A DNA stretch of 64,000 nt, taken from the NCBI RefSeq assembly GCF_001485215.1, contig NZ_BBWW01000002.1, positions 35,564 to 99,563 of the forward strand, written 5' to 3'. Under the pieces are notes generated by a model that was given only the letters and a program-made list of their open reading frames with translations, did no database searches and was not told where the DNA came from. Within the stretch, counting starts at the first letter, position 1. Every line of letters begins with the position of its first letter. Positions 9,728 to 48,900 of the stretch are shown one piece after another. The translations under genes and the position numbers were made by a program. Origin of the DNA: Leptolyngbya sp. NIES-2104. GTDB taxonomy: Bacteria; Cyanobacteriota; Cyanobacteriia; Leptolyngbyales; Leptolyngbyaceae.

Positions 9728-11647
9728 ATGTTTTCTATCACTTCTCCTCGCGTTCCAACCCTACTTAAACAGCATCCTGATGCCGTTGCAGCTTTACTCT
9801 GTGGCGTTTTAGTTCTACTAGGCTGGCTTACCCTACAGTCGGGATGGCTCGGTCTTGCACTGCTGATCTTGCCTGCGGCTTATGTGATTGGTGGCTATGA
9901 AAGCGCTCGTGAAGGTCTCACAACTCTATTTGAAGAAAAAGAACTTGATGTTGATCTGCTGATGATTGTGGCAGCGTTAGGAGCAGCAGCATTGGGATTG
10001 TGGCGCAGAGAATATTCTTTTATTGTCGATGGTGCGGTTCTGATTCTGATCTTCTCGATTAGTGGTGCATTAGAAGGTTATGCGATGCAGCGTACTGAAC
10101 GAAGCATCCGAGGGTTAATGAATTTGACGACAGACACGGCACGAGTTTGGCGCAATGGACGAGAAGAGGAAATTGCGATCGCGAATCTCCAAATCGGCAG
10201 TGAGATCATTGTGAAACCGGGCGAACTCGTTCCCACAGATGGCTTGATCGTAGAAGGATTCAGCGCTCTGAATCAAGCTCCGATTACTGGGGAATCGATG
10301 CCTGTGGAGAAGACGATCGGCGATGAAGTCTTTGCTGGAACCATTAATGGGAGTGGTGCATTACGGCTCAAACTGCACCAACCGCCGGAAAGTAGCTTGA
10401 TTCAGCGCGTGATCCGCCTCGTTGAGCAAGCACAAACCGAAACGCCACCGTCTCAGCAATTCATCGAACGATTTGAGCGGGGATACGCTAAAGCGATCGT
10501 CATCCTCGGAATTCTATTTGCATTGCTTCCACCGTTCCTCTGGGGTTGGAGTTGGGAAACCACGATCTATCGCGCACTGATTTTTCTTGTGGTTGCCTCT
10601 CCCTGTGCATTAATGGCAGCTACAATGCCGACATTGCTTTCTGGAATTGCGAATGGGGCACGGCAGGGAATTTTATTCAAAAACGGCGCTCAACTAGAAC
10701 TGATTGGACGAGTAAGCGCGATCGCGTTTGACAAAACCGGGACACTCACCACGGGAAAGCCCCAAGTCGTTCAAATCATGGCGGTTGATCAGGATAAAAC
10801 GCAATTGCTCAAAGTCGCAGCCGCTTTAGAAAGTCTATCCGAACACCCGATCGGAGAAGCCGTCGTTCGATTCGCCCAGAAACAGCAGATTGACTGGCAG
10901 CGAGCAACGAATGTTCAGGCTCATACGGGATGGGGAATTACCGGAGAAATTGATCAACAATTGGCAATCGTAGGCAAGGCAGCTTTTGTCAGGGAACAGT
11001 CCATCGGTTGGTCAGACGCTTTGACCACATTCGTGCAGCAGTTAGAATCATCTGGAAAAACGGTGATATGGGTTGCTTATGCGGGAAAACCGCTGGGCGT
11101 GATTGCGATCGCGGATCAAATTCGTTCTGAAGCTCAAAGTACGATCGCTCGACTCAGACAGCTTGGAATTCGAGAAATTGTGATGTTGAGCGGAGACAAC
11201 GATCGTACTGCCCGCAGTATTGCCGATGAACTCGGAATTGATCAGGTCTATTCCGAACTGCTGCCTGAGAACAAAGTCGATGTGATTCGATTATTGCAAC
11301 GACAGTATGGCACGGTGGCAATGGTTGGAGATGGGATTAATGATGCGCCTGCTCTCGCTCAAGCCTCGATTGGCATTGCAATGGGAGCAGCAGGCAGTGA
11401 TGTAGCACTAGAAACCGCAGATATTGTCTTGATGGCAGATCGGCTAGAACGCTTGATCGGTGCAATTCGTCTCGGTCGTCGCGCTCAGCGCATTGTGAAA
11501 CAAAACATTGTGTTTGCACTGAGTTTTATTGTGCTGTTATTGGTGGCGAATTTTGTCAGCCATATCACTTTGCCTTTAGGCGTTGTTGGGCATGAGGGAT
11601 CGACGGTGTTAGTGACGCTGAGTGGATTGAGACTGCTGAGAAATTAG
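9728..11647 (+). CDS. coaT: Cobalt-exporting P1B-type ATPase
   Basis: The 639-residue P-type ATPase lacks an N-terminal HMA domain. The membrane metal site is SPC (291-293) rather than CPC, which defines the P1B-4 Co2+ group. TGES is present, and the phosphorylated Asp335 lies in [17 protein letters not shown] follows, and then two C-terminal helices. It exports cobalt from the cytosol and is expected to be switched on by CoaR. ATG at 9728 (MFSITSPRV) is preferred. An in-frame TTG at 9710 is possible but less common. It is the only gene in its transcript, since a 227-base gap and a new promoter region precede arsR. Confidence 0.94.
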   Translation: MFSITSPRVPTLLKQHPDAVAALLCGVLVLLGWLTLQSGWLGLALLILPAAYVIGGYESAREGLTTLFEEKELDVDLLMIVAALGAAALGLWRREYSFIVDGAVLILIFSISGALEGYAMQRTERSIRGLMNLTTDTARVWRNGREEEIAIANLQIGSEIIVKPGELVPTDGLIVEGFSALNQAPITGESMPVEKTIGDEVFAGTINGSGALRLKLHQPPESSLIQRVIRLVEQAQTETPPSQQFIERFERGYAKAIVILGILFALLPPFLWGWSWETTIYRALIFLVVASPCALMAATMPTLLSGIANGARQGILFKNGAQLELIGRVSAIAFDKTGTLTTGKPQVVQIMAVDQDKTQLLKVAAALESLSEHPIGEAVVRFAQKQQIDWQRATNVQAHTGWGITGEIDQQLAIVGKAAFVREQSIGWSDALTTFVQQLESSGKTVIWVAYAGKPLGVIAIADQIRSEAQSTIARLRQLGIREIVMLSGDNDRTARSIADELGIDQVYSELLPENKVDVIRLLQRQYGTVAMVGDGINDAPALAQASIGIAMGAAGSDVALETADIVLMADRLERLIGAIRLGRRAQRIVKQNIVFALSFIVLLLVANFVSHITLPLGVVGHEGSTVLVTLSGLRLLRN

Positions 11648-27466: not shown

Positions 27467-28876
27467 CTAAGTGAAGCTTTTGGGTTCTCGTCCGACCTCT
27501 AGAATGTTCTCAAAGAATTGATCTAGGTCTGTTGGAGCAATTTCAGGGTTTGCCAGAATCAGCCGGAGCGCAATTTTGCCATTGATCAAGGCATAGTTCA
27601 CCAGGCTTTTGCCGCTCTTAACTAATCGATCGCGCAACTCAAGATTGAATTGGTCGAGATCTGGCGCATCGGTTGAAACATATCGAAAACAAACGTTCAG
27701 AAACTGAACTGGAGCAACTAACTCTAGTTCTAAGCATTCATCGACTTTCTTAGTTGCATATCGCGTCATCTCCAACAGATGATTGATTCTCTGTTCATAG
27801 CCGCGCTTCCCGTAGTATTGCCAAGCTAACCAAAGCTTCAGCGCATCGGCTTTTCTGCCGCACTGCAAAGACATAATGCCTAGATCATACGCAGCATCCG
27901 CGTGGTCGTGAAATAGGTAGTCTGTATCTGCATTCGAGACGGTTTGAGTCAGCATTCCAGGCTGTCTCAGCAGAAGTGCAGAACAGACGAAAGGGACTCC
28001 CATCAGTTTGTGAGCATCCCAAGTAAAAGAGTCGGCGAGTTCGCTTCCGGATAACAGATGCCGAACACGATCGCTTAAAATCGCGGCTCCACCCCAAGCT
28101 CCATCGATATGAAACCAAAGATTGTATTTTTGGGCGATTTGAGCCATTTCGATCAAGGGATCAAAAGCGCCTAGCACTGTGGTTCCAGCCGTCGCAGCGA
28201 CAAAGAAGGGAATTTCGCCCGATGCGTAGCTTTTCGCGATCGCATTCTCAAGCGCCTGCGGAATAATTCTGCCTTGATCATCCGTTTCGACTTTGATGAC
28301 GCGGTTCAACCCAATCCCCAAAACATTTGCGGCTTTGAGAAATGAGTAATGGGCTTGATCCGAAACGAATACGGTGAGTGGATTGGACTGAATGCCCTGG
28401 TGTTTTGCTTCGGGAAGCATCTTGTTTCTGGCACACATCATCGCGACGAGATTCGCATTGCTTCCTCCGGTGACAAAGGTGCCTTCGCCTTGAGTAAAAC
28501 CGATAAGCGAATTGAGTGTGTGAATCAGTTCTTGCTCGATCAGCGTTGCGATCGGAGCAATTTCATACGTTGCTATTGATGTATTTGTTAAGCTGATCAA
28601 CAGTTCGCCGATCAGTCCGGGTAGATTGAAGCCAGCAAATAGCTGATTGAAGAATTGTTTGTGTCCAGTTCTAACGCTATAGGTTAAGTAGGTTTCAATC
28701 AGCGCGAGAAAGCGATCGACTGTCACTCCCTGTTCAGGAATCGATAAATCAATCTTTGCTTTCAACGCTTCGGGCGGGTGACACTGAACGACTCGTGTGT
28801 TTGAATCAGAATTTTCTACGAGATACCGATTCACCCTCTCTAGCACTTTGGATAACAGTTCATGCGGTTCTGACAT
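27467..28876 (-). CDS. Group II PLP-dependent amino acid decarboxylase
   Basis: The 469-residue protein has the fold-type I decarboxylase features: GSNANLVAM, the cofactor region HIDGAWGGAAIL, and the Schiff-base Lys290 in TWDAHKLMGVP. Relatives decarboxylate glutamate, cysteine sulfinate, cysteate, aspartate or 2,4-diaminobutyrate, and the sequence alone does not fix the substrate. It is the last gene of a six-gene operon that also encodes a cysteate-synthase homologue and a GH3 amide synthetase. I therefore propose L-cysteate to taurine as the reaction; that is inference from context. The gene is 12 bases after the GH3 gene. Confidence 0.88.
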   Translation of the reverse strand: MSEPHELLSKVLERVNRYLVENSDSNTRVVQCHPPEALKAKIDLSIPEQGVTVDRFLALIETYLTYSVRTGHKQFFNQLFAGFNLPGLIGELLISLTNTSIATYEIAPIATLIEQELIHTLNSLIGFTQGEGTFVTGGSNANLVAMMCARNKMLPEAKHQGIQSNPLTVFVSDQAHYSFLKAANVLGIGLNRVIKVETDDQGRIIPQALENAIAKSYASGEIPFFVAATAGTTVLGAFDPLIEMAQIAQKYNLWFHIDGAWGGAAILSDRVRHLLSGSELADSFTWDAHKLMGVPFVCSALLLRQPGMLTQTVSNADTDYLFHDHADAAYDLGIMSLQCGRKADALKLWLAWQYYGKRGYEQRINHLLEMTRYATKKVDECLELELVAPVQFLNVCFRYVSTDAPDLDQFNLELRDRLVKSGKSLVNYALINGKIALRLILANPEIAPTDLDQFFENILEVGREPKSFT

Positions 28877-28888
28877 TTTGCTTCTCGA

Positions 28889-30568
28889 TTAAGTCGTTTC
28901 CTCAAGCTGAATTTTTTGCAGTATCGTTAAACCTGCCAAGAAGTTTCTATCTTCGCTTAAATGCGGGAACTTGAGTTGAGAATCGGGAATGCCTTTTTGG
29001 AGTTGACGCTGGCGCAGAATGGCAAAGCTGCCGGGTGCGAGAATTTGCAGTCTTGGGGGTGGAATTTGATTGTGACGATTCACCGCATAGGCGTTATTCG
29101 ACTTCCGAAGCCGTCGTTCAAAGCTCGACAACAAGGCTTGAGGATTGTCGATCGTACTTCCTGGAGCCAGTTCAATGTTTACGAGGTAATGGGCTGGAAA
29201 CTCATGTTCAGATAAGGTAATACAGAAATCTTCTAAAGCAATGTCAAACTCTTGCTGTAATCCCTGCATCACTTGCGTTGCATGAAATTCTGTCGTTTTC
29301 TCGAACGTTGAGGACAGCAATCCACCTGCGCGATAGCGAAAGACAATCAGCGGGGCTTGCTCATAAAAGCCCACCACTTCCACAACATCGCCAATGTCAT
29401 AGCGGTAGAATCCGCTGTAGTTGGTCATGAGAATTCGGTAGTATTCTCCAGCTTTTACTTCAGTTGCTAGCAATGGTTTTGGATGCTCAGTTTCCCATTG
29501 ATCTTGCGGTACAAACTCAAAGAAGCCGCTCTCGATCGCTAAAACACTGCCATCCATGTCTACATCTGGATAAACCCCAATATTGCCTTCTGCTGAAGCG
29601 TAAGCGGCTCCGAATCCTGGAATCGTTCCAAAATAATCCGAAAATCGTTCAAAGTAGAAATCCGAAGTGCCACCACGGGCTGTGACGATCGCAGATAAAT
29701 TTCGCCAAGCGTGTTGAGGGGTGAGGCGATTGTGCGATCGCAGGACTGCATTTAGTTCATTCGCTCGATTTGAATTCGCAGACCATTGTTTTTCTAAGCT
29801 GGCTCGGATCTCTGGTTCTAGGTCTAACCAGGGCGCGATCGTCCCTGTCTTAATGTCATGAATAAAATTCTCAGCATACTGCTCAAGATACATACAAATC
29901 CGTAGAATCAGCATCGGATAGTTTGCAGCAATCGATCGAGTCGCTGGATCATTCAGTGCAAATAGCAAACAGATATAATGCCGAGCTAAACTATCTGCGA
30001 TCAGCGGAGTTTGAGACGGATGAGCAAAAATCTGACTGTATAGCAATCGACTCATGCGAAAGACACCCGCTGCCGCCGGACCGTAATCAATTCCGCCAGT
30101 CGTCTGACCGAGCAGTAGAGCCGTATTCGTAATTAATGTTTTACCAAATTGGCGCTTTCTCGATTGCAACGCATCGTTCAAAAAGCCAATGCTGGCTAAG
30201 TTTGATCGACGCAGTGAGTTTTGAAATCGATACGTCACCGGAATCATTTTCTTAGTTCCCGTTGAACCACTGGTTAAGCTGAAATACACGACTGGATCAG
30301 CAGTGAGAACATTCTTTTCACCGTTTGCAATACGATCAATATAAGGTTCATAGCTACTGTAAGGAAGCACTGGAATCTGTGCTTGAAATCGCTCGATCGT
30401 TCTAATCTCGCTTAAGCCATAGTTTCGACCGTATTCGGTGTGTTGATGCGTTGTGAGCAGCGATCGTAAGAATCGCTCTTGTGTCGCTAAAGTGTGACGA
30501 GTTTTACGCACAAAATTAACTTTCGTCGCTCTTGCAATCGTGACCAGCAGGGGCAATAAGTTTGCCAT
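28889..30568 (-). CDS. GH3 auxin-responsive-promoter family acyl-amide synthetase
   Basis: The 559-residue protein has the GH3 nucleotide-binding motif VVYFSLTSGSTGTKKMIPVT (about 92-111), an N-terminal YGLSEIRTIERFQAQIPVLPY segment, and the C-terminal YRYDIGDVVEVVG segment with GGLLSSTFEKTTE. Plant GH3 enzymes adenylate a carboxylic acid and couple it to an amino acid. Bacterial members of this length are mostly uncharacterised. Here it probably joins an acyl acid to an amine made by its neighbours. Taurine is a candidate, because the operon encodes a cysteate-synthase-like protein and a decarboxylase. Spacing to the DedA gene upstream is 8 bases. Confidence 0.9.
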   Translation of the reverse strand: MANLLPLLVTIARATKVNFVRKTRHTLATQERFLRSLLTTHQHTEYGRNYGLSEIRTIERFQAQIPVLPYSSYEPYIDRIANGEKNVLTADPVVYFSLTSGSTGTKKMIPVTYRFQNSLRRSNLASIGFLNDALQSRKRQFGKTLITNTALLLGQTTGGIDYGPAAAGVFRMSRLLYSQIFAHPSQTPLIADSLARHYICLLFALNDPATRSIAANYPMLILRICMYLEQYAENFIHDIKTGTIAPWLDLEPEIRASLEKQWSANSNRANELNAVLRSHNRLTPQHAWRNLSAIVTARGGTSDFYFERFSDYFGTIPGFGAAYASAEGNIGVYPDVDMDGSVLAIESGFFEFVPQDQWETEHPKPLLATEVKAGEYYRILMTNYSGFYRYDIGDVVEVVGFYEQAPLIVFRYRAGGLLSSTFEKTTEFHATQVMQGLQQEFDIALEDFCITLSEHEFPAHYLVNIELAPGSTIDNPQALLSSFERRLRKSNNAYAVNRHNQIPPPRLQILAPGSFAILRQRQLQKGIPDSQLKFPHLSEDRNFLAGLTILQKIQLEETT

Positions 30569-30576
30569 AAATCAAT

Positions 30577-31155
30577 CTAACCTCTACGCTTCACAAACCA
30601 AACGATCGCGAACCCAATCAGCACCAACACCCCGACCCGAATAGAATTCGCATACTGATTGACTTGTCCATATTGACCACCGAGCAGATACCCCGCATAC
30701 GCTAACAATCCTTGCCATATGATCGCGCTCACAATCAAACACAGCAAGAACAATCCCAAATTCATGCGGCTGATTCCCGCAGGAACCGCGATCAAGGTTC
30801 GCACGATCGGAATAAATTGACTCAACAAGATGGCTCTGCTGCCAGACGCATCAAACCATTTCTGCGCTTTCCGGACATCGCGAATCGATAGCTTGATCCA
30901 ACGGCGATCGCGCTCTGCCCATCGCAGCAGTCGCGCTTCTCCAAAATAGCGTCCTGCCCAGTACCAAGGCAGCGCCCCAACCGTACTGCCGACGACTCCA
31001 GCAGCGACTGCACCGATAAAATTGAGTTTACCTTGGGCGGCTAGAAATCCAGCTAATGGTAAAACAATCTCTTGCGGGGCTGGAAGTAAAAAGATCAGCA
31101 AAAAGATTCCCAAATAGCTCAAAGAGCTTACAATATCCGTCGGATGTGCCAGCAT
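30577..31155 (-). CDS. DedA-family membrane protein
   Basis: The 192-residue protein has several membrane helices and the DedA/SNARE-associated signature: ILLSQFIPIVRTLIAVPAGISRMN (about 108-131), plus an N-terminal PAPQEIVLPLAGFLAAQG with a conserved Glu. DedA proteins move phospholipids or undecaprenyl phosphate across the membrane. It lies inside the lipid/amide operon, 21 bases after the cysteate-synthase homologue, and could flip the lipid product. That assignment is inference. Confidence 0.88.
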   Translation of the reverse strand: MLAHPTDIVSSLSYLGIFLLIFLLPAPQEIVLPLAGFLAAQGKLNFIGAVAAGVVGSTVGALPWYWAGRYFGEARLLRWAERDRRWIKLSIRDVRKAQKWFDASGSRAILLSQFIPIVRTLIAVPAGISRMNLGLFLLCLIVSAIIWQGLLAYAGYLLGGQYGQVNQYANSIRVGVLVLIGFAIVWFVKRRG

Positions 31156-31176
31156 TCTGTTCTAATATGAATGGAT

Positions 31177-32442
31177 CTAGGACAGTCCCGCCAGCTTTTC
31201 TAAAACGGTTTCTGTCGAGAATCCAGGGTTAACAAGCTGAAGTGTCGGTTCTATTGTATAGCGTGAGCGACGATCGTATTCTCGACATCGACCCCCAGTA
31301 ATATGTAGTAGCACGATCGCGTCAGGATCAATTTGATCATCTTTGACTGCCTTGATCAAACTCGCAAACGCAACACCTGCTGCTGGCTCGATTTCGACCC
31401 CTTCCACCGCTTGAAACAGTTGCATCGCTTCAGCAGTCTCTGAATTGTCAGAAAATAGCATATCGCCTTGACTCTCAACTAAGGCATCATAAACTCCACC
31501 TTTAACCACATAAGGCGGACGCTGATTTGAAAGTACCGTTGCTAAAATCTGCTTCACTTGCTCTTTTCCCTCCGGTTGCGGAAACTGTCGAGTGTGAGAC
31601 TTCCAGGCGTGATAAATCGGCATAAACGGAGAATTCTGGCTTAACATCAATTGCGGGAGCTTCCGCCCAAACTGCCCTTGATCGACTAATCGCTTTGCGG
31701 CTTCATGCACGGCAATCGCGCCTGCTCCACTGCCGATCGCCTGGAAATAATAGTCGGGCAACTGTCCGATTGTCTCGATCGCATTTAATAAAGTTGTCCC
31801 AATGCCATCCCGCCGCCCGATGTTTCTCACACCGCCTTCGAGAAAAAATGATTCGTGTTGAGCCAGGTTCTGTGCAAGCTGAATGGCATCATCATAGTCC
31901 GCATCCACCAAGGAAATGACGCGAACACACGGATTCAGCGGAGCCGCCAACTTAAGCTTCGCGAGTGCTTGACTGGGCACAATGAGCAAACAGGAAACTT
32001 GATTCTGTGAGCAAACATGAGCGAAGGCAGCAGCAGTATTGCCCGCAGAGGAAACAACTAGAGTTCCTTGATGCTGCTGGGGTAAACGCGATAACACCGT
32101 ATAAGCTTCAAGCTCTTTAAATGTGGTCGTTTCTAGCATTGCTTCTTTGTCTAGCCAATACCCGTTAAAGGCAATCCACAGATTTGGCAAGCTTAGGCGA
32201 TCGCACAGTTTCTGGCTCTGATAAGTTACAGTCTTGCTCGATTGACGCAGCGAGTGACAAATTGGCAGCCATTTATGATATCGGAAGATTCCTTCACGAC
32301 TTGATTCTGGCTCAAATCTTCGAGCCGAGTAGTGAGTGAGTAAAAGCGCTGCTTCGTGCTTGACTGGACATTCCAGAATGAAACCATCATCTTCTAGAAC
32401 TGCGCCGCAGAGTTGGCATTTGACGGTGTAGTGCTGAGGCAT
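31177..32442 (-). CDS. Cysteate synthase-like (threonine-synthase family) PLP enzyme
   Basis: The 421-residue fold-type II PLP enzyme starts with a zinc-ribbon-like CQLCGAVLEDDGFILEC. It then follows the cysteate synthase pattern known from Methanosarcina: YHKWLPI, FNGYWLDKEAM with TTFKELEA (PLP Lys109), SSAGNTAAAFAHV (phosphate loop), GGVRNIGRRDGIGTTLL, and YYFQAIGSGAGAIAV with NSPFMPIYHAW. True threonine synthases differ in these blocks. The archaeal enzyme makes L-cysteate from O-phosphoserine and sulfite. If the activity holds, the operon would generate a sulfonated amino acid. A threonine-synthase-like activity on another phosphorylated amino acid remains possible. Confidence 0.8.
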   Translation of the reverse strand: MPQHYTVKCQLCGAVLEDDGFILECPVKHEAALLLTHYSARRFEPESSREGIFRYHKWLPICHSLRQSSKTVTYQSQKLCDRLSLPNLWIAFNGYWLDKEAMLETTTFKELEAYTVLSRLPQQHQGTLVVSSAGNTAAAFAHVCSQNQVSCLLIVPSQALAKLKLAAPLNPCVRVISLVDADYDDAIQLAQNLAQHESFFLEGGVRNIGRRDGIGTTLLNAIETIGQLPDYYFQAIGSGAGAIAVHEAAKRLVDQGQFGRKLPQLMLSQNSPFMPIYHAWKSHTRQFPQPEGKEQVKQILATVLSNQRPPYVVKGGVYDALVESQGDMLFSDNSETAEAMQLFQAVEGVEIEPAAGVAFASLIKAVKDDQIDPDAIVLLHITGGRCREYDRRSRYTIEPTLQLVNPGFSTETVLEKLAGLS

Positions 32443-32507
32443 CTGTGATCGATTCCAGGTAAAACGTCTTCAGTTTGCTGCGAATGTTTCAAGTTTGCAT
32501 CAGGCTA

Positions 32508-33284
32508 TCAGTCGTATTTTCCACGTCGATCGTTGAATCGAATTGTTAGAAGGTCGAACAGCATCGCCAAGGAATCTGACAACAAATTCACCTGAGAGCG
32601 TTTTCGCTGATGCTCATTCGATACGATCGCAGGAATCTCTGTGATCGAGTAGCCAAATTTTCTTGCAATGTAAATAAGTTCAACATCGAACGAAAACCCG
32701 TTCATGGTCTGCTTTAAGAACAGTGCCTTCGCTGAGTGTCGCCGAAATCCTTTGAGTCCAGCTTGCATATCTCGATAAGGCAAATCGAGCAATCCTCTCG
32801 ATAGTAGATTGAAAACTCTTCCTGCAATCCTACGACTAAAGCTGAGTCTCTTCTCGCCAACCCTACGACGACAGCCGATGACGATATCAAACTGTTGTAA
32901 CTCTACAATCAGTAATTCTAAGTGATCAAGCGAATAGGCTAAATCACTATCGACATAGCAAACATAATCCCCATAAGTGTGTACGAGTCCGCGCTTGATC
33001 GCATACCCTTTTCCAGCATGGAAGTCATAAGAGAGCAGTTGAATTTCTTTCCTCCCGGCTGCGTTGATCTTTGACTGCAAAAATGGCTTTGTCCAATCAC
33101 TTGAACCATCATTCACAAACAGAAAATGATAGGTGGGATGCGATCGCGAATATTCTAAAACTGCATCAAATGTCTTTTCAATGCAAGTCTGCTCATTGTA
33201 GACGGGCAGAATTACTGAAACTTCGGTGATCACACGACTTGCTTCGGTTGAAGCTTGATCGATCATACTCAGATTGCTTTTCAT
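32508..33284 (-). CDS. GT2 glycosyltransferase (dolichyl-phosphate sugar synthase-like)
   Basis: The 258-residue soluble GT2 enzyme has VILPVYNEQTCIEKTFD, FVNDGSSDWT, GKGYAIKRG, and the metal-binding YVDSDLAYS (DxD). The DMQAGLKGFRR segment is typical of dolichyl/polyprenyl-phosphate glucosyl- or mannosyltransferases. It lacks membrane helices at the C-terminus. It is the second gene of the operon, 8 bases after the GT21-like gene. A lipid-linked sugar or glycolipid is the expected product. Confidence 0.85.
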   Translation of the reverse strand: MKSNLSMIDQASTEASRVITEVSVILPVYNEQTCIEKTFDAVLEYSRSHPTYHFLFVNDGSSDWTKPFLQSKINAAGRKEIQLLSYDFHAGKGYAIKRGLVHTYGDYVCYVDSDLAYSLDHLELLIVELQQFDIVIGCRRRVGEKRLSFSRRIAGRVFNLLSRGLLDLPYRDMQAGLKGFRRHSAKALFLKQTMNGFSFDVELIYIARKFGYSITEIPAIVSNEHQRKRSQVNLLSDSLAMLFDLLTIRFNDRRGKYD

Positions 33285-33292
33285 TCAATGTT

Positions 33293-34537
33293 TCAATAGT
33301 TGGAAGATTCAAATGTAGAGACTGAAAGCGCGGAATCCCTAGAGGTGAGTGAAATGAGTTTGCCATCTTCTATCAGCTTGAAGCGATGACCACGCCACTC
33401 AACAGTATTACTGGTGAAGCTATAACACCAAAGCAGAAAACTGAGAATGTCACGCAGCGGAACAAGCCATATTAGTTTTTTAGCGATCGGATCAGCAAAA
33501 TACTTGACTCCGACGCACCACGCCATAATGAATCGAGTTGTCCATACAAGGCTTACTACAATCCATCCAAGTTTTGAGAATTCAGTTAAATACAAGAATA
33601 AGCAACTGCTGACAGTGCCATAGGTGAAAATCAGACCCATGTAGCTCCAAGGTCGAGAGAAACGAATGCCCCGCATCCAACGAGTTTGACGGTGAAGTAC
33701 ATCTGATAAAGTATTTGACGTAACGACATGACTCACGATATGGCTTGAAAGCACTACTTTGTAGCTCAACTGAGCAGGCAGATATCCCAGTTGAAAATCG
33801 TCTGCAAGGTAATCAGCGATCGCATAAAATCCTCCGATTGCTTCAAGAACATGCCGTCGAATCAGAATGGTTGAACCCATTGCAAATTGCATCCCTTCTA
33901 GCTGATTGCTGGTTAGGACTCCAGGCTGAAACTCTGTTGCAATATTCAAGGTTTCAAGCTTTGCAATCCAGCCTTGAGCAATCGAGCGGTAAGGACAAGT
34001 CACAACCCCAACAGAAGTATCCTTGAAGGGTTGAACAACATGACGTAAATAGCTTGATTCAACTCGAATATCACTATCAGCCAGCAGTAGAATGTTATGT
34101 TTCGCCTGAGTTACTGCATTTGCTAAATTATTCACTTTGAGATTTGTACCGGTACTGCGATCACTAACCACAATTTCAATGTCAACTTCAGGAAAGTCTT
34201 GCACAAGTTGTTGAACAATCCTAAGACTTGGATCAGTACTATCTCTTATACCAAAGATAATTTGATACTCTGGATAGTCTTGCTGGCAAAATGATGCCAA
34301 ATTTTGGTAGGTTGCGTGATCACAGCCGCAGATTGGTTTAAGAATACTAATTGCTGGATGAAACGTTTTGTCGATCGTCGTTGGTTTGAAAAACAACTTT
34401 ACTGCTGCATAAGTGGCATAGCAATAAAACCAAACTGCTGCAATACACAAAATGAAGAGGAACGAGAGCAACCAAAACTCAATGCTAGACCAGAGAAGAT
34501 GACTTGGAGCGATCAAGGATCGAGATAGATCAGTCAT
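33293..34537 (-). CDS. GT21 ceramide-glucosyltransferase/HpnI-like glycosyltransferase
   Basis: The 414-residue membrane enzyme has one N-terminal helix (about 18-40) and three C-terminal helices. The GT21 catalytic motifs are in order: D1 in FGIRDSTD, D2 in LLADSDIRV, D3 in ADDFQLG, and the RQTRWMRG (Q/RxxRW) site. Family members add a sugar to ceramide, or N-acetylglucosamine to bacteriohopanetetrol (HpnI). Hopanoid or another amphiphile is therefore a likely acceptor. It is the first gene of the operon and lies 87 bases downstream of regulon promoter copy 5. Confidence 0.88.
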   Translation of the reverse strand: MTDLSRSLIAPSHLLWSSIEFWLLSFLFILCIAAVWFYCYATYAAVKLFFKPTTIDKTFHPAISILKPICGCDHATYQNLASFCQQDYPEYQIIFGIRDSTDPSLRIVQQLVQDFPEVDIEIVVSDRSTGTNLKVNNLANAVTQAKHNILLLADSDIRVESSYLRHVVQPFKDTSVGVVTCPYRSIAQGWIAKLETLNIATEFQPGVLTSNQLEGMQFAMGSTILIRRHVLEAIGGFYAIADYLADDFQLGYLPAQLSYKVVLSSHIVSHVVTSNTLSDVLHRQTRWMRGIRFSRPWSYMGLIFTYGTVSSCLFLYLTEFSKLGWIVVSLVWTTRFIMAWCVGVKYFADPIAKKLIWLVPLRDILSFLLWCYSFTSNTVEWRGHRFKLIEDGKLISLTSRDSALSVSTFESSNY

Positions 34538-36827: not shown

Positions 36828-36956
36828 ATGGAGAAATACAATTGGTTCAAACTAGGGATACAAGTGACAATAATTAGCCTAGCAACACTATTTTTCGCAG
36901 CCATGCTAGAGGGTGTTATGCACTTTGAAACCGGATTTCAACAAAGCGTTTGACCA
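36828..36956 (+). pseudogene. 5' part of a small membrane-protein gene disrupted by IS
   Basis: ATG at 36828 follows GAAAAGGATG and encodes MEKYNWFKLGIQV and a hydrophobic helix ending FFAAM, at which point the insertion sequence begins. The last 16 codons come from the IS. The gene is aligned with promoter copy 8. Rejoining across the target duplication keeps the frame open for about 55 further codons, antisense to the flavoprotein gene. The original 3' end may therefore have been lost. Confidence 0.4.
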
Positions 36957-37754
36957 TCAATGCTGCAAAGGCAATCAGGTGAAAGCCTGCTAACGTCTCT
37001 GGTAAGCGCTCGTAATCTCGCGCCAATCGACGAAAGCGCGACATCCAGCCAAAACTGCGCTCTACCACCCAGCGACGCGGCAGAAGAACAAATCCTCTGC
37101 GAGCTTCGGGCAGTTTGACGACTTCCAATCGAATGCCCTGAGCTTGAGCATCCTCGGCAGGTTGTTCTCCGGTGTAGCCTTGGTCTACAAACGCCACTTC
37201 GACCGATTCCCCAGTCACTTCCTGTACCTGTTGTGCCAAGGCTTCGACCTGGTGGCGGTCTTGTTCATTGGCAGGAGTGACGACCAAGGTGAGCAGATAG
37301 CCCAAGGTATCGACTGCCAAATGCACTTTGCTGCCTTTTTTACGCTTGCCGCCGTCGTAACCCGCTCGCTCTCCGCTTTCCACGGTCGATTGCAAGGTGC
37401 GACTGTCGAGAATCATGGCGCTCGGTTGAGCATTGCGCCCACTCAACAATCGCAGCAACTCACGTAAGTCATGGACAATCTCCTCAAACACCCCAGCTTT
37501 AATCCAGCGCTGGGTTTGCTGATAGACCGTGTGCCACGGTGGTAAGTCGTGCGGCATCAGTCGCCAACTACTTCCCGCTCGAACCATCCAGCGCAGTCCA
37601 TTGAACACTTCTCTCAAGCTATGGTCGCGTTGCGGTGCATCCTCGATCATCAGGGTCAAATACGGCGCGACAAATGCCCACTCATCGTCGCTAACATCGG
37701 TTGGATATGCTTTTCTCGTCATGCTCTCAGTCTAGCAAAAGTGCATAACACCCT
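36910..37754. mobile_element. IS5-family insertion sequence (845 bp)
   Basis: The ends are perfect 14-bp inverted repeats AGGGTGTTATGCAC (36910-36923) and GTGCATAACACCCT (37741-37754). They are flanked by CTAG on both sides (36906-36909, 37755-37758), which fits a 4-bp CTAG or a 2-bp TA target duplication. One intact transposase gene fills it. The perfect ends and intact gene point to recent arrival. Confidence 0.92.
36916..37722 (-). CDS. IS5-family DDE transposase
   Basis: The 268-residue transposase has an N-terminal DUF4096-like region ([17 protein letters not shown] ... [16 protein letters not shown]). The DDE triad is visible: D in MILDSRTL, D in VDQGYTGE, and E in [17 protein letters not shown]. 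Single-frame IS5-type transposases of this size belong to the IS427/IS1031 side of the family. Many of those need a frameshift; this one does not. It is oriented opposite to the small gene it interrupts. Confidence 0.95.
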
Positions 37755-37765: not shown

Positions 37766-38944
37766 TCAGTTGAAGGTTCCACCAAACGTCGTTTCCATCA
37801 TCACGGGTAAGTTAGGAGCCGTCAATCGATTGGGCAACTCACCGCGAGTTGCTTGGATAAATTTCTTGCCTAGAGCAGGAAAAGTACGACATAGATTTAC
37901 ACTCAAGCTTGCCAAGCTGGGATGAATAAAACTCTCGTGCAGCAAGCGACCCAGCCGTAGGCGGGTATAGAATTCTTGATTCCAGGTTGCTTCGTACTGG
38001 CGCTTGAAATCGATTTCACTGAGATTCTGTTGCAGAAATTTGATGACTAAAGGGATAGCAAGCTCTGCCGATCGCAGCGCCATTGCCATTCCATCTCCAC
38101 ACAGCGGCGTGATCATTCCGGCTGAATCCCCAACCATGCAAACATCTCCATCAAACTTTCCCTTCAAATCAAAAGAAATCTGGCTTAGTCGATGCTGCGA
38201 TCGCCTGACACATTGCATTGACTCAAACCGTTCTGCAAGGACAGAGTTCTGTAAGAGAGCATCAGGAACAGTCCGATTTTTTGAGCTTAGAATCCGCTCG
38301 TGAGCAATCCAGCAGACATTAATTTCTCCCGTTTCAATCTGCGAAAGTCCGCAGTAGCCACCTGGAAAGGCATGAAGTTCAATTACACCAGGGAGTTCCA
38401 GTCCTGTGTAATGTGCTTTGAAGGCAACAAAAGGGCTATGTTTCTGAGTGAAAGGGCGACTTCGATCGAGGGCTGAACGCTTTCCATAACATCCCAGTAC
38501 CAAAGAGCTTGTAAAACTGCCCTGATTTGTATTGACGACAAACCCCTGCTGCAAATCGCCAGAAACTGATCGCACTACTGTACCATCTAGACAATGTGCG
38601 CCTAATTCCTGCGATCGCTGAAATAGCATCAAGTCGAGTTGATAACGGCTCAATCCAAGTGCGACTCCAGGTAGTTCACTCTCGAAGCTTGCTCCAGTAG
38701 AAGTGGTTAGATAGGTTCGTCGAATCGGATGCGCTCCAGCTTGGCGAACTGCTTCAAGGATGCCAAGCCGCTCGAATGCTGCAATCACTTCGATCGATAA
38801 AAACTCGCCACATAGCTTATGCACTGGATATCGCTGCTGTTCCAACAATAGGACTCGATACCCGTGTTCTGCGAGTTGGATTGCTGAACTACATCCTGCT
38901 AGTCCTGCACCGATTACGATGATGTCGTAATGTCCGTTGTTCAT
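37766..38944 (-). CDS. FAD-dependent oxidoreductase in type III PKS operon
   Basis: The 392-residue product (ATG 38944) has an FAD-binding fold (YDIIVIGAGLAGCSSAIQLAEHG) and the geranylgeranyl-reductase/aromatic-hydroxylase style VGDSAGMITPLCGDGMAMALRS near residue 280. A CGEFLS motif (about 46-51) is also typical. The ATG overlaps the methyltransferase stop (ATGA). In Streptomyces srsABC a related flavoprotein hydroxylates an alkylresorcinol. A longer frame to 39178 only reads back through the methyltransferase gene. The 3' end lies 10 bases from the IS. Confidence 0.88.
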   Translation of the reverse strand: MNNGHYDIIVIGAGLAGCSSAIQLAEHGYRVLLLEQQRYPVHKLCGEFLSIEVIAAFERLGILEAVRQAGAHPIRRTYLTTSTGASFESELPGVALGLSRYQLDLMLFQRSQELGAHCLDGTVVRSVSGDLQQGFVVNTNQGSFTSSLVLGCYGKRSALDRSRPFTQKHSPFVAFKAHYTGLELPGVIELHAFPGGYCGLSQIETGEINVCWIAHERILSSKNRTVPDALLQNSVLAERFESMQCVRRSQHRLSQISFDLKGKFDGDVCMVGDSAGMITPLCGDGMAMALRSAELAIPLVIKFLQQNLSEIDFKRQYEATWNQEFYTRLRLGRLLHESFIHPSLASLSVNLCRTFPALGKKFIQATRGELPNRLTAPNLPVMMETTFGGTFN

Positions 38945-39687
38945 GCTGTCACCGTGGTCAATAGCCAGCGAAAAGGAAAGTAACTGCGTAGCGAGAAATT
39001 CTGCAATCCAGCGGCTTCTGCGATCGCGGTTAGTTCCGACTTTTGAAAACCGCGCAGCACCGATAAGGGTCCATCGTTCTGCATCATCGGTGATGCAGGT
39101 AAAAGATGAGTCAGTGCATAGATTCCATAGTAAGCAAGCGGATGACGATGAAGATCGTTGATCACGATGCCATGACAAGATACGCGCTGCATTGCCTGTA
39201 CAATTGCGATCGCGTTTACCTCAGCAAAGTGATGCAGAAACATCGCACCCATTGCAATATCAAATGAATCATCTGCATAGGGAAGCGCTAGAGCATCTGC
39301 AACTTCGACCTGGATCTTTGCAGCCGCAGCTTCGGGAAGTCGCTGTTTTAAAGCAGTACGGGCATAGTCTACGGTGACGGGGTTTGCATCCACAGCAACA
39401 ATTTCTACATCCAGTGTTGGGAACTGCGCTCCTGCCCACTGCACAATGTACTCTGGAAAGTCTGCGATCCCCGTGCCTAAGTCTAAAATCCGGGTGGTTT
39501 GTCCAACGCGCGATCGCAAGAAAGGCGCGATCGCCGCCATCGTCGTGCTGTATCCACCCAGCCATCGATTGACCAGTCTCAGTTGCTCTAAAGCGCTCGT
39601 TAATCGAGTATCCGTAATGGAAAAATCATCCATTAACTCATCTTCGTTCGTGCGAATCTGAAAGGAAGGCATGGGTGGATAGTTCAT
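38941..39687 (-). CDS. SAM-dependent methyltransferase of PKS operon
   Basis: The 248-residue product (ATG 39687, MNYPPMPSF) carries a class I SAM site (ILDLGTGIADFPEYI, about 74-88), the acidic EIVAVDANPV and ALPYADDSFDIAMGAMFLHHF. ATGA overlaps occur at both ends, with the PKS stop upstream and the flavoprotein start downstream, so the three genes are translationally coupled. It probably O- or C-methylates the polyketide, as SrsB does. Longer frames starting before 39687 run antisense-free but lie inside the PKS gene and are not needed. Confidence 0.88.
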   Translation of the reverse strand: MNYPPMPSFQIRTNEDELMDDFSITDTRLTSALEQLRLVNRWLGGYSTTMAAIAPFLRSRVGQTTRILDLGTGIADFPEYIVQWAGAQFPTLDVEIVAVDANPVTVDYARTALKQRLPEAAAAKIQVEVADALALPYADDSFDIAMGAMFLHHFAEVNAIAIVQAMQRVSCHGIVINDLHRHPLAYYGIYALTHLLPASPMMQNDGPLSVLRGFQKSELTAIAEAAGLQNFSLRSYFPFRWLLTTVTA

Positions 39688-40805
39688 GATGAGGATTCTA
39701 AAACTTGTTGAAAAAGACAGCCTTCGATCGACAATCCCGGACCAAATGCCAGCGCGATCCCATTCTGGTAGCCTAATCCAGCCTGATGCTTCTCTAGCAA
39801 CCGTTTGAGGATAAACAAAATCGTGGCAGAACTCATATTGCCGTACTGCCGCAACACCTCGTAAGAATCGCAGACTAAGCCACTGCTTAACCCCAGCCCC
39901 GACTGAATCTGATCCACGATTTGTCGCCCGCCAGGATGGATTGCCCAAAAATCTAGCGTTTCTTGATCTAAGTTGTGTCGATCGAGCAAGGCTTTGAGAT
40001 AGCTAGGTAGATGCTTGGCAATGACTTTCGGCACGTCGGATGAGAGTCCCATCAAAAAACCTGTATTCCCGATCGTCCAACTCATCAAATCGAGCGTATC
40101 TTCGACCAAAACACTACTTCCATCCACGTAAGCAAGCTGACCTTGCGCTTCTTGAAGAGAACGAGCAGAGAAAATTGCAGCACCAGCACCATCAGCGAAT
40201 AGGGCATTAATTACCATGCTTTCGATCGAGTCTTCGATCTGAAAGTGCAGAGTACAGAGTTCTACACAAATGATTAGGACTCGCGCTTGGGGATGACTCT
40301 GACAAATAGAATGCGCCATCTTGAACCCGTTGAAAGCTGCATTGCAGCCCATAAAACCAATCAGAGTTCTATTAATCTCAGGCGACAATCTGAGATGCTT
40401 GATCAAATGAATATCGAGTCCCGGTGCGGAAAAGCCTGTGCAGCTTACAACAATTAAGTGAGTCAGGTCTGCGGCTTGAAGTTTGGATTGTGCGATCGCA
40501 TCTTGAGCCGCACGTTCTGCAATTTCCAGAGCAGCGTGCCGATAGTACTGATTGCGCTTAGCGGTTGTCGGAGTCGGCTGAAGCGACCAATTCTGAGGAT
40601 AAAACTGAAATTGTCCAGGTTCACTTTCATAGTCCGAGAGGCAACTATGCCGATAGTCAATCCCCGACCGAGCATAAATTCCCGCCATTCGACTGCGAAC
40701 GGCGGGAGATACGCCTTCTACCCGCCTCATAAAGTGCGATAAGTCAGATTGAGAAACTTTGAAGGGCGGGTTGGCAGTGCCAATCGATTCTAAAACTGTG
40801 TACAT
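39684..40805 (-). CDS. Type III polyketide synthase
   Basis: The 373-residue enzyme has the chalcone-synthase fold and full catalytic triad: Cys154 in GFMGCNAAF, His290 in WAIHPGG and Asn323 in YGNMSSAT. The CTGFSAPGLD and GPGLSIEG loops are also present. Bacterial relatives make alkylresorcinols, alkylpyrones or quinone precursors from fatty acyl starters. With the coupled methyltransferase and flavoprotein, a methylated, oxidised phenolic lipid is the likely product. Regulon promoter copy 9 lies 310 bases upstream on the same strand. Confidence 0.94.
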   Translation of the reverse strand: MYTVLESIGTANPPFKVSQSDLSHFMRRVEGVSPAVRSRMAGIYARSGIDYRHSCLSDYESEPGQFQFYPQNWSLQPTPTTAKRNQYYRHAALEIAERAAQDAIAQSKLQAADLTHLIVVSCTGFSAPGLDIHLIKHLRLSPEINRTLIGFMGCNAAFNGFKMAHSICQSHPQARVLIICVELCTLHFQIEDSIESMVINALFADGAGAAIFSARSLQEAQGQLAYVDGSSVLVEDTLDLMSWTIGNTGFLMGLSSDVPKVIAKHLPSYLKALLDRHNLDQETLDFWAIHPGGRQIVDQIQSGLGLSSGLVCDSYEVLRQYGNMSSATILFILKRLLEKHQAGLGYQNGIALAFGPGLSIEGCLFQQVLESSS

Positions 40806-45944: not shown

Positions 45945-48900
45945 ATGCTCGAAGGCGTTATCCTACAGAAGGAGTTAGGCGATTCAAGAAATTTTGATTT
46001 TATGGTAGGGCAAATCTACGGCTGGAAACGGTTTTGGTGCTCGCGTTCAAGTCAGTTCGATCTGAGCGATCGCGGGTATCTCACCGATCCCGACTCTGAC
46101 TGGGGTAGGTACTGTAATTCAACGCTGATCAGTCTTGACGCGATGGCTGAGATGCGCTGCTTGGTTTTACTCGGTGAACCTGGAATGGGTAAATCGAAGG
46201 AATTAGAAAACCTGAGAACTCACACTCGATCAATTGCGAATCCATGCGACCAGCTTTTACCGATCGATCTTCGAGCCTACAGCAGCGAAGATCGACTAAT
46301 CCGAGGTCTATTTGAATCAAGGGTCTTTCTAGAATGGTTAAACGGCACACATCAACTGCATCTCTTTCTCGATAGCCTTGATGAAGGTTTATTGAAAATT
46401 GAGGCGCTCTCAATTCTGTTAATCGAAGAACTCAGTCGAGAAGAGTATTGTAAGCATCTCGATCGTCTCCATTTTCGGATTGCTTGCCGCACTGCTGTTT
46501 TTCCAAAGGGCTTAGAAGAAGGGCTAGAGCGACTCTGGGAAAAAGATGTGCAAGTTTATGAGTTAGTTCCGCTTCGGCGAATCGATGTCGGAGTAGCCGC
46601 CGCCGCTCGTAACCTAGATAGCAGCAGTTTTTTAGCAGCAGTCGAGCAAAAGGGAGTTGTCCCATTTGCGATTAAGCCAGTAACACTAGCATTTTTGATT
46701 CGCATTTTCCAGAAAAACAATGAACAATTTCCCCAAGAATTAACCGATCTCTACCTTCAGGGTTGCAGAATTCTGTGTGAAGAGCAAAGAGATCAAGACT
46801 ATCATCCAGGGACAAGAACAAATCGTACTGATGTTGAGTCACGATTGATCGTAGCGGCTCGTATTGCTGCTGTAACTGTCTTCGCTAGAAAATCCAGTAT
46901 CTGGACCGGGAATTTGAGCGAGGCTGATGATGAAGATATTTTGCTAGAGCAGTTGTGTTTAGGAAGCGAGACAGTCAACCAGAAGACGATCGCGGTTACA
47001 AATCTCATTGTTCGTGAAGTGCTTGATACTGGGCTGTTTTCTTCTCGCGGTGAGAGCCGAATCGGATGGGCACATCAGTCTTATGCTGAATTTTTAGCGG
47101 CGTGGTATTTAGCTCAACATGGTTTATCTCTCGATCAGATGCTGAGTCTGATGACTCTCTCAGATAAAAGAGTCATTCCCCAACTGCATGAGACATCGGG
47201 TTGGCTTGCTAGTTTAGATCCACAAGTCTTTCAAAGCTTGATTGAAACTGATCCTGATGTTTTAGTGCAAAGCGAAATCACTGTAGAAAATCCATCCACG
47301 AAACGGGACGTTCTTGAGTCTCTGCTAACTCTGTACAATCGAGATAAGCTGGCGTATCGTCCCTATTTGCCTAAGTTTTCACCCTACAAACGATGGAACT
47401 ACGCTGGCTTAGCTTTGCTGCTGAGAGCCTATATCGAAGATTCAAGCAAAAGTGAACTATCGCGAGTTGTTGCAATTGAAATCGCAGAAGCGTGCGAGGT
47501 GCAAGCAGTTCAAGATTGCCTTGCAAATGTTGCCCTTGATTCTCAACAATCTTATCGAGTCAGAACAGAAGCTCTACAGGCACTGGAATCATTAGCTGAC
47601 GATTCGACGAAAGCGCGACTGATTCCACTTGCGATCGCTCGATCGCCTGATGACCTTGACGATGAATTGAAAGGACGATCGCTACGGATGGTTTACCCAA
47701 ATCATTTAACCGCGATCGGAGTTTTAGAGAGTCTAACCCAACCTCAGTCAAACATTATTGGCGGAGTCTATCAAGACTTCTTAGCGAAAGAGTTTGCAGA
47801 ATCCCTCCAAACAACCGATTTACTAGCTGCACTAACCTGGTTAGGAGAGCAACCTGCTTTATGCGATGCGAAATATCCATTCAATCGATTGTCAGATCGA
47901 ATCTTGTTTAACGCTTGGCAACGTCTTGAAGATCAAGCCATTCTAGAGGGCTTCGCCAAAATCGTCTTACTGCGGATTCAAGAATACAAACAGGTTATCG
48001 ATAATATCACTGGAATTGAATTCATCGAATTATTAGCAGCAGATGATACGAAGCGCCGTCGTTTGCTCGAAGCAATTATTGCTCTGATTCCTAATTCAGA
48101 GGAACCTCCAAGATTCCTAGCTGGAACGAGCATTTATAGTCGTGTGACTCCTCTGAAACAGGATTTCGACTGGTTAATTGAGAAGATCCAAAATTCAGAG
48201 CTTGAACGGGTACAAAAAATCTACGCATGGTTAGTGCGCTTAAAGCTAGACTGGAGCAATACAGCGCAAATCAGCGAAGTGATCCGTGCAAGTGAAACCC
48301 TTCCTGCTTTGAGGGCAGAGTTCTCATTCTTTCTGGCGGCAGTGGAACTTAACTCATTAGAGGCTGAGGCTGCAAAGGCAGAATATTTGCGTGAGCAAAG
48401 TGCAACTTGTGCTGAAAAATCCGCAATATTTACACTGGAGCCATCACCTCAAGAGCGGGTTTTGATTCAATTAGCAGAATTTGAACGTGGTCAGATAGAG
48501 GCATGGTGGCGCTTGTGTCGCGAAATGACTCTCACACCTACAAGCCAACATTATGGCAATGAATGGGCATCGGATATTACGTCACTTCCAGGTTGGAAAG
48601 AAGCAGACGACTCAACTCAACAAAGAATCGTCGCGGCAGCAAAACAGTATATTATTGGTGTAGACCCTGAAACTGATACTTGGTTTGGCACAAATTCCTT
48701 CCAATCCTTAGTGCTTGCTGGATACAAGGCATTACGCCTAATTCTCGAAAAAGAGCCTGACCATATTCAACACATTTCTGCTGAAGTTTGGAGAAAATGG
48801 ACAGGAATCATTCTTGACTATCCCAATGCTAGCGATAGTAGAAATAAGGAACACCGGGAGCCTTTACTATCTTTCGCCTACCAAAATGCACCAGATGAAT

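What the first reader, a model, noticed from the sequence alone, without database searches (positions are those of the whole stretch)
27467..34537. Operon that may make a taurine-type N-acyl amide lipid
A cysteate-synthase homologue, a group II PLP decarboxylase and a GH3 acyl-amide synthetase are in one operon with a DedA protein and two glycosyltransferases. In known chemistry, cysteate synthase makes L-cysteate from phosphoserine and sulfite. Group II decarboxylases can turn cysteate into taurine. GH3 enzymes couple acids to amines through an acyl adenylate. Together they suggest phosphoserine + sulfite to cysteate to taurine to N-acyltaurine, or a related sulfonolipid, which would then be exported or glycosylated. 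This differs from the cysteate acyltransferase route to sulfonolipids in Bacteroidetes.
Basis: partly seen in the sequence, partly recalled or inferred. Interest (0 to 1): 0.9.

Follow-up and report, generated by a model that had tools for sequence, protein, structure and literature searches.

The report
Predicted taurine-amide lipid operon, cyanobacterium
Six tightly packed genes in a cyanobacterium look set to build the sulfonate taurine and join it by an amide bond to a lipid that is then given a sugar, which would be a sulfur lipid made by an unusual route, but no enzyme of the set has been assayed.

Summary
In detail: six same-strand genes, 8-65 nt apart, encode an HpnI-type glycosyltransferase, a GT2, cysteate synthase (CS), DedA, a GH3 amide synthetase and a group II PLP decarboxylase. 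The decarboxylase is nearest to CSAD/GAD, with two of three CSAD-type pocket residues.

Main new evidence: in both other sampled cyanobacterial genomes that have CS and GH3, the two genes are neighbours (1.4 and 1.9 kb apart), although these GH3s do not form one clade. A bacterial GH3, OlsH, is a proven N-acyl-ornithine synthetase.

Cautions: one CS+GH3 genome has no PF00282 decarboxylase; another has a protein nearest to cysteate racemase between CS and GH3. So cysteate itself may be the usual amine and taurine a variant of this operon. The glycosyltransferase is of a hopanoid family, but its genome lacks the HpnJ partner that 27 of 29 other tested carriers have. The acid (fatty acid or glycolipid carboxyl) is unresolved. 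Partly supported; new variant of a known kind; interest 0.66.

The parts
33293..34537 (-). GT21 glycosyltransferase of the HpnI family (bacteriohopanetetrol glucosamine biosynthesis glycosyltransferase; GT21 is also the family of ceramide glucosyltransferases, by recall)
   Evidence: TIGR03472 365.6 bits over cut-off 310; PF13506; up to 59% identical to HpnI homologues of other cyanobacteria, but no HpnJ match in this genome
32508..33284 (-). GT2 glycosyltransferase resembling polyprenyl-phosphate sugar synthases (DPM1/ArnC/PpgS type, my reading)
   Evidence: PF00535; only below-cut-off NCBIfam models; sugar and acceptor unknown
31177..32442 (-). cysteate synthase (O-phosphoserine + sulfite -> L-cysteate, by family), PLP lysine Lys109 by alignment
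   Evidence: TIGR03844 434.6 bits over cut-off 324.9; PDB 9k3c cysteate synthase 350 bits vs best threonine synthase 72; tree; Lys position
30577..31155 (-). DedA / VTT-domain membrane protein, nearest to undecaprenyl-phosphate transporter UptA; possible lipid flippase
   Evidence: PF09335; UptA models 118 and 117 bits, below cut-offs 250 and 300; a 65% identical relative follows CS in L009/L149
28889..30568 (-). GH3 ATP-dependent acyl-acid amido synthetase with three nucleotide-binding motifs (starting at residues 99, 323 and 386)
   Evidence: PF03321/PF23571/PF23572; JAR1 144 bits; motif positions; motif definitions from PMC12493201 section 6
27467..28876 (-). group II PLP decarboxylase, predicted to act on cysteate or cysteine sulfinate (taurine-forming), PLP lysine Lys290 by alignment; pocket triad F80-S100-A102
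   Evidence: PF00282 322 bits; mouse CSAD 364, GAD65 344, human CSAD 343, GAD67 339, GADL1 335 bits; triad; Lys

Best explanation
The operon makes a sulfonate-headed amide lipid. Step 1 (inferred from strong family membership): CS replaces the phosphate of O-phosphoserine by sulfite to give L-cysteate. Step 2 (inferred from subgroup, pocket residues and operon): the PLP decarboxylase turns cysteate into taurine; it must act before the amide is made because PLP chemistry needs a free amine. Step 3 (inferred from the GH3 family, the OlsH precedent and the CS-GH3 linkage): GH3 adenylates the carboxyl of a lipid acid, most likely a fatty or hydroxy-fatty acid, and transfers it to the amine of taurine (perhaps also of cysteate). 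Step 4 (weakly inferred): the HpnI-type GT21 puts a sugar on a hydroxyl of the product or of its acid partner, and the GT2 and DedA supply or move a polyprenyl-phosphate sugar or the lipid across the membrane. My step-wise odds: CS activity 0.9; taurine formation 0.8; GH3 uses the operon's sulfonated amine 0.7; acid is a fatty acid 0.6; glycosylation of the same molecule 0.45.
For: CS passes its equivalog cut-off and groups with cysteate synthases, apart from the genome's two threonine synthases at 100/99. The decarboxylase is nearest to CSAD/GAD, and a 54% identical relative lies 3.1 kb from CS in G360, a second CS-decarboxylase neighbourhood, though on the opposite strand. CS and GH3 are neighbours in G000, G159 and G374, the three of 386 genomes that have both at the thresholds used (gene-to-gene 608, 1902 and 1447 bases). 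Leaving the window out, two of two others are linked, chance about 5e-6 from the per-genome values. The three CS-linked GH3s need three label changes on the GH3 tree, so the GH3s are not one clade. OlsH, a bacterial GH3, makes N-acyl ornithine from free fatty acid, ATP and Mg2+, and its authors say homologues elsewhere may use other amino acids (PMC12493201: abstract, passages, sections 6 and 7). Cyanobacterial GH3 loci carry lipid-type genes: fatty-acid hydroxylase in 10 of 22, Mpo1-like in 8, OlsC-like in 4, and a PlsC-type acyltransferase just upstream of GH3 in four genomes of one genus. G000 has the GT21 but no HpnJ match, against 27 of 29 other tested carriers, which points away from ordinary BHT cyclitol ether.
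Against: No assay, no lipid data. G374 has CS+GH3 but no PF00282 match at E<=1e-20, and G159's only one lies on another contig with a different triad (H,S,D), so decarboxylation is not a constant part of the CS-GH3 pair. G159 has, between CS and GH3, a protein whose best model is cysteate racemase CuyB (123.6 bits, cut-off 190), which suggests that cysteate is kept there. The CS-neighbouring decarboxylase of G360 has triad F,T,H, one of three CSAD-type residues. The window's third triad residue is Ala, not Tyr. The GH3 has no residue signature shared by CS-linked copies beyond chance (4 columns; 23% of random triples do as well), and 49 of 52 GH3 carriers lack CS, so the usual amine of this GH3 clade is probably something else. 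The three label changes are the most that three rows can give, and one old linkage lost many times would also fit. OlsH prefers non-hydroxylated fatty acids and ornithine. The full six-gene order was seen in no other locus that I looked at. In L009/L149, the nearest CS relative, the gene after CS-DedA is an amidase, not GH3, before the contig ends.
Confidence: 0.5

Rival explanations
1. The acid partner is not a free fatty acid but a carboxyl on a glycolipid: the HpnI-type GT and GT2 make a uronosyl (or other carboxylated) lipid, and GH3 joins taurine to that carboxyl, giving a glycolipid taurine amide.
For: Two glycosyltransferases share the operon. [quoted passage not shown] A lipid with ornithine and taurine also exists (cerilipin; passages of PMC6669457; that the taurine is amide-bound is recalled).
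Against: Characterised GH3s use fatty acids or small acids as far as I recall; no uronate-forming gene is in the operon; HpnI is named as a glucosamine-pathway enzyme (model name).
Confidence: 0.2
2. The conserved product is an N-acyl cysteate lipid; in this genome the decarboxylase only tunes the head group or has a separate job.
For: G374 has CS and GH3 in one cluster with OlsC-like and fatty-acid hydroxylase genes and no PF00282 match at E<=1e-20. In G159 a racemase (PF01177; best model cysteate racemase CuyB, 123.6 bits, below its cut-off of 190) and a methyltransferase lie between CS and GH3 on the same strand, which fits cysteate kept as a chiral amino acid.
Against: Here the decarboxylase is the last gene of the same tight operon, 12 nt after GH3, and is of the CSAD/GAD subgroup.
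Confidence: 0.15
3. Two unrelated functions share the operon: CS plus decarboxylase make soluble taurine (osmolyte or sulfonate store), while GH3, the GTs and DedA make an unrelated aminolipid, hopanoid glycoside or cell-wall precursor.
For: G360 has CS and a decarboxylase relative but no GH3 match, beside a TauD-methyltransferase fusion and two methyltransferases, like a soluble-taurine pathway. 49 of 52 GH3 carriers lack CS. The GT is HpnI-like.
Against: CS-GH3 linkage in G159 and G374 without a neighbouring decarboxylase ties GH3 to CS directly.
Confidence: 0.11
4. A capnine-type sulfonolipid as in Bacteroidetes: cysteate is condensed with acyl-CoA by the alpha-oxoamine synthase encoded elsewhere in the genome, and GH3 N-acylates the product.
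For: The genome has an alpha-oxoamine synthase at C1:1401035 (76% identical to the one near GH3 in G308); a spirochaete has CS followed directly by such a gene (L020).
Against: That synthase is present at 72% identity or more in 24 of 27 chosen genomes, 21 of which lack CS, so cysteate is unlikely to be its usual substrate; and the operon's decarboxylase would drain cysteate.
Confidence: 0.04

Closest known systems
OlsH (GH3-like N-acyl ornithine synthetase, Singulisphaera acidiphila; PMC12493201)
   Same: GH3 family, bacterial, predicted free acid + amine -> amide with ATP; shared nucleotide-binding motifs
   Different: Only 88.9 bits to the OlsH model against a cut-off of 620; predicted amine is taurine or cysteate, not ornithine; an OlsI partner was not looked for
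Cysteate synthase (TIGR03844): methanogen coenzyme M synthesis (Graham 2009, seen as a reference entry) and capnine synthesis (Cys of Chryseobacterium gleum, PMC11211663, passages)
   Same: Same reaction predicted; over the equivalog cut-off
   Different: In a clade with Acidobacteria and other cyanobacteria, apart from the methanogen, spirochaete and G360 copies; linked to GH3; the Bacteroidetes enzyme was not in my tree
CSAD-type taurine synthesis in prokaryotes (Synechococcus PCC 7335; Agnello 2013, recalled; only the reference entry was seen)
   Same: CSAD/GAD-type decarboxylase giving taurine
   Different: Cysteate made de novo from phosphoserine and sulfite instead of oxidation of cysteine; triad F,S,A not F,S,Y
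Glucuronosyl diacylglycerol taurineamide (Hyphomonas) and cerilipin (Gluconobacter)
   Same: Known bacterial lipids that contain taurine
   Different: Biosynthetic genes not known to me; different backbone possible
HpnI of bacteriohopanetetrol glycosylation
   Same: Equivalog cut-off passed
   Different: No HpnJ match in the genome; sits with sulfonate and amide genes

Membership tests
Cysteate synthase (TIGR03844) | score over the curated equivalog cut-off | tested here: met
   434.6 vs 324.9 bits
Cysteate synthase (TIGR03844) | phylogenetic separation from threonine synthase | tested here: met
   own threonine synthases L002 and L003, and L096 of G054, split off at 100/99; all three pass the thrC cut-off; they are on long branches, as the tree output warns
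Cysteate synthase (TIGR03844) | activity with O-phosphoserine and sulfite | not testable with these tools
   needs an assay
CSAD-type decarboxylase | PF00282 family with the PLP lysine | tested here: met
   322 bits; Lys290 in DAHK
CSAD-type decarboxylase | pocket triad F-x19-S-x-Y (recalled from Agnello 2013; not read here) | tested here: inconclusive
   F80, S100, A102: two of three; mouse CSAD F,S,Y and GAD65 S,N,F read
CSAD-type decarboxylase | score clearly above GAD | tested here: inconclusive
   mouse CSAD 364, GAD65 344, human CSAD 343 bits
GH3 acyl-acid amido synthetase | N-terminal, central and C-terminal GH3 domains | tested here: met
GH3 acyl-acid amido synthetase | three nucleotide-binding motifs | tested here: met
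   aligned to JAR1; motif 2 is YASAE where plants have YGSSE
OlsH (lyso-ornithine lipid synthetase) | score over the NCBIfam equivalog cut-off | tested here: not met
   88.9 vs 620 bits
HpnI, BHT cyclitol-ether pathway | score over cut-off | tested here: met
   365.6 vs 310
HpnI, BHT cyclitol-ether pathway | HpnJ present in the genome | tested here: not met
   no TIGR03471 match at E<=1e-20 in G000
HpnI, BHT cyclitol-ether pathway | squalene-hopene cyclase present | not tested
Bacteroidetes capnine sulfonolipid pathway | a cysteate acyltransferase (alpha-oxoamine synthase) with CS | tested here: not met
   none in the operon; a relative of unknown substrate elsewhere in the genome
UptA undecaprenyl-phosphate transporter | score over cut-off | tested here: not met
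   118 vs 250 and 117 vs 300 bits

The most novel reading that the evidence does not exclude
Cyanobacteria assembled, probably more than once, a route to a new class of glycosylated sulfonolipid: cysteate is made de novo from phosphoserine and sulfite, kept (perhaps epimerised) or decarboxylated to taurine, and joined to a lipid acid by a GH3 synthetase instead of an acyl-CoA-dependent acyltransferase, with a repurposed hopanoid glycosyltransferase adding the sugar.
Probability: 0.35. Interest if true: 0.85.

Novelty: new variant of a known kind. Interest (0 to 1): 0.66.

Why it matters
It would give a genetic handle on taurine or cysteate lipids, which are known chemically but without genes known to me; add a second sulfolipid type to oxygenic phototrophs beside SQDG; extend bacterial GH3 enzymes from ornithine to sulfonated amines; and show a taurine source independent of cysteine oxidation. 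What I saw of the held open-licence library held no paper on cysteate synthase in cyanobacterial lipid synthesis or on a GH3 for taurine; two searches listed only 15 of 238 and 15 of 409 papers, I went by listings except for the papers named, and subscription papers and preprints are outside that library. Each step is directly testable with purified enzymes.

Tried and rejected
Threonine synthase instead of CS: rejected by model scores and tree. Plain HpnI/hopanoid operon: weakened because HpnJ is not found. Capnine route: thought unlikely for the operon, see rivals. A residue signature for amine choice in GH3: looked for, none beyond chance. RNA regulator: no Rfam match at the gathering score in the window. 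Promoter and terminator scan: uninformative. Related plasmids: no DNA match to the operon at E<=1e-5; protein searches gave two Streptomyces plasmids for CS (E<=1e-60) and none for GH3 (1e-60), decarboxylase (1e-80) or GT21 (1e-60). Structure prediction was not run: the families are clear and a fold would not show the substrate. Not done for lack of searches: squalene-hopene cyclase in the own genome; GH3 and PF00282 in G421.

Limits of the counts: the 20 GH3 regions fetched, together with L045 and L046 (22 loci, 23 GH3 genes), come from the strongest match places and are not a random sample; the window's own locus is not among the 22. The 27 genomes and the 32 were chosen by me, mostly GH3 carriers. 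The HpnJ test left out one of the 30 other carriers of an HpnI at 40% identity or more (G103). The CS-GH3 chance figures assume uniform gene placement.

Full report
OBSERVATION. Pfam and NCBIfam name them GT21/HpnI, GT2, cysteate synthase, DedA/VTT, GH3 and group II PLP decarboxylase. The window lies at C2:35564-99563 of a 6.39 Mb genome in five contigs; C2 is 318 kb. CS, PF00282 and GH3 each have their only cut-off-level copy here. That the genome is cyanobacterial rests on its family-mate G421, taken to be the Oscillatoriales MAG of L009, and on gene content.

CYSTEATE SYNTHASE. TIGR03844 scores 434.6 against a cut-off of 324.9; the best threonine-synthase model scores 77. The solved 'Cysteate synthase' 9k3c gives 350 bits and the best threonine synthase 72. 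The genome has two proteins over the thrC cut-off (340 and 342 vs 167), which score only 82 and 36 with TIGR03844. In a tree of 40 rows the window CS pairs with L009 (100/100), then with G159 and G374 (99/94), then with two Acidobacteria (99/95); the three threonine synthases fall outside (100/99), on long branches. Methanogens, one spirochaete (L020) and G360 form another group (100/100). CS is rare: 4 of 386 genomes of the phylum sample and 2 of 42 of the order at E<=1e-60, the window's genome being one in both. In two Acidobacteria and two Streptomyces loci that I tested (L010, L011, L012, L040), CS lies near nonribosomal peptide synthetase genes or parts, where cysteate may be a peptide building block.

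DECARBOXYLASE. The best solved relatives are mouse CSAD (364 bits), GAD65 (344), human CSAD (343), GAD67 (339) and GADL1 (335), which does not settle the substrate. At the three pocket positions that I recall from Agnello and colleagues (2013; the paper was not held) mouse CSAD reads F,S,Y and GAD65 S,N,F; the window reads F80,S100,A102. Only 3 of 386 genomes have a relative at E<=1e-70: the window's, G360 (two copies, 54%) and G213. The triads are F,T,H and W,S,Y in G360 and W,S,Y in G213. The F,T,H copy of G360 lies 3.1 kb from CS with a TauD-methyltransferase fusion and two methyltransferases (75% alike) between, but CS and the fusion are on the other strand. So CS and this decarboxylase type are neighbours in two genomes, one of them not as an operon.

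GH3. The protein has all three GH3 domains and the three nucleotide motifs, and aligns with JAR1 over most of its length. OlsH of a planctomycete is a GH3 that makes N-acyl ornithine from free fatty acid, ATP and Mg2+, needs Ser115 of motif 1, and prefers non-hydroxylated fatty acids; its authors state that homologues outside planctomycetes may use other amino acids (PMC12493201; abstract, passages and sections 6 and 7 read). The window protein is not an OlsH by model score (88.9 vs 620). GH3 occurs in 52 of 386 genomes of the phylum sample at E<=1e-10, 49 of them without CS.

LINKAGE. The three genomes of the 386 that have both CS and GH3 have them as neighbours: gene-to-gene 608 (window), 1902 (G159) and 1447 bases (G374); between matched parts 723, 2014 and 2192. 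With uniform placement the product of chances is 2.8e-9 with the window and about 5e-6 without it. Having GH3 is itself commoner among CS genomes (3 of 4, against 52 of 386; chance 0.008). The three GH3s are scattered in the GH3 tree (three label changes), while the CS copies form one clade with G421. CS may have been placed beside different resident GH3 genes; one old linkage with many losses would also fit. This is the best evidence that the two enzymes share a pathway. In G159 all genes of the stretch are on one strand, and between CS and GH3 stand a methyltransferase and a racemase (PF01177) whose best NCBIfam model is cysteate racemase CuyB (123.6 bits, below its cut-off of 190). In G374 an OlsC-like hydroxylase and, on the other strand, a fatty-acid hydroxylase stand between. 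G374 has no PF00282 match at E<=1e-20 and G159 only one, on another contig. In G421/L009, CS is followed by DedA as in the window and then by an amidase, where the contig ends; its GH3 content was not tested.

LIPID CONTEXT. Of 22 cyanobacterial GH3 loci (strong matches, not a random sample; window not counted), 10 hold a fatty-acid hydroxylase, 8 an Mpo1-like protein, 8 an amidohydrolase, 7 an MFS protein, 4 an alpha-oxoamine synthase, 4 an OlsC-like hydroxylase, 4 a Rieske protein and 3 a GNAT protein; four loci of one genus have a PlsC-type acyltransferase just upstream. One member of each group was named by Pfam or NCBIfam and the others were assigned by clustering. The window's genome has the hydroxylase and the oxoamine synthase on C1, away from the operon. 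These GH3s therefore often sit in lipid-type gene neighbourhoods.

GLYCOSYLTRANSFERASE. HpnI relatives at 40% or more occur in 30 other genomes of the sample. I tested 29 of these (G103 left out) for HpnJ: 27 pass its cut-off, one (G155) has it in two pieces on two contigs, one (G111) has only a 78-bit piece; the window's genome has none at E<=1e-20, nor do G402, G403, G185, G289 and G374, while G421 has it. In G060, G300 and G334 HpnI lies next to or near HpnJ, and in G060 and G334 also near HpnK. The window's GT is up to 59% identical to these but joins none of their clades with support. It may have been taken over for another lipid. Squalene-hopene cyclase was not tested, so a simple hopanoid glycoside stays possible.

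MECHANISM. Phosphoserine + sulfite -> cysteate -> taurine -> amide with a lipid acid -> sugar added, moved by DedA. Shown here: gene content, family membership, linkage. Inferred: every reaction. The weakest links are the choice of amine (taurine or cysteate), the acid, and the role of the two GTs and DedA. Lipids with taurine are known chemically: the Hyphomonas glucuronosyl diacylglycerol taurineamide (title in the reference list of PMC4071594) and cerilipin (passages of PMC6669457); their genes are not known to me.

NOVELTY. All enzyme kinds are known; the combination, and the CS-GH3 pairing in cyanobacteria, I did not find in what I saw of the held library (listings only, except the papers named; two searches listed 15 of 238 and 15 of 409). 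I rate it a new variant of a known kind. It would be near a new lipid class if the product were shown.

Noticed in passing
window 37766-40805, minus strand: Type III polyketide synthase (chalcone/stilbene synthase domains), methyltransferase and FAD oxidoreductase in one overlapping run, as in small phenolic-lipid pathways.
   Followed up: no
window 36916-37722: IS4/5-type transposase between the type III PKS run and an LptF/LptG permease.
   Followed up: no
L086, L092, L093, L080 (cyanobacterial GH3 loci): A set around GH3, whole or in part: alpha-oxoamine synthase, Rieske protein, MFS protein, and in some a GNAT protein and an SDR; it resembles a bacterial sphingolipid gene set (my reading). 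The synthase is found at 72% identity or more in 24 of 27 chosen cyanobacterial genomes.
   Followed up: partly
L045 (G159), 5899-10893: CS, a protein nearest to cysteate racemase CuyB (below its cut-off), a methyltransferase and GH3 on one strand: a possible D-cysteate amide pathway.
   Followed up: partly
L044 (G360): CS, a TauD-methyltransferase fusion, two similar methyltransferases and a CSAD-like decarboxylase without GH3: a possible N-methyltaurine pathway.
   Followed up: partly
L201 (G213): CSAD-like decarboxylase (triad W,S,Y) next to an octopine-type dehydrogenase: possibly opine formation from taurine or beta-alanine.
   Followed up: no
L020 (Spirochaetales MAG): CS followed directly by an alpha-oxoamine synthase: a possible capnine-type sulfonolipid pair outside Bacteroidetes.
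   Followed up: partly
L010, L011, L012, L040: CS near nonribosomal peptide synthetase domains in Acidobacteria and Streptomyces, suggesting cysteate as a peptide building block.
   Followed up: partly
window 45945-50267 and 50493-53963: Two very long ORFs (1440 and 1156 aa) without a Pfam match at E<=1e-8.
   Followed up: no
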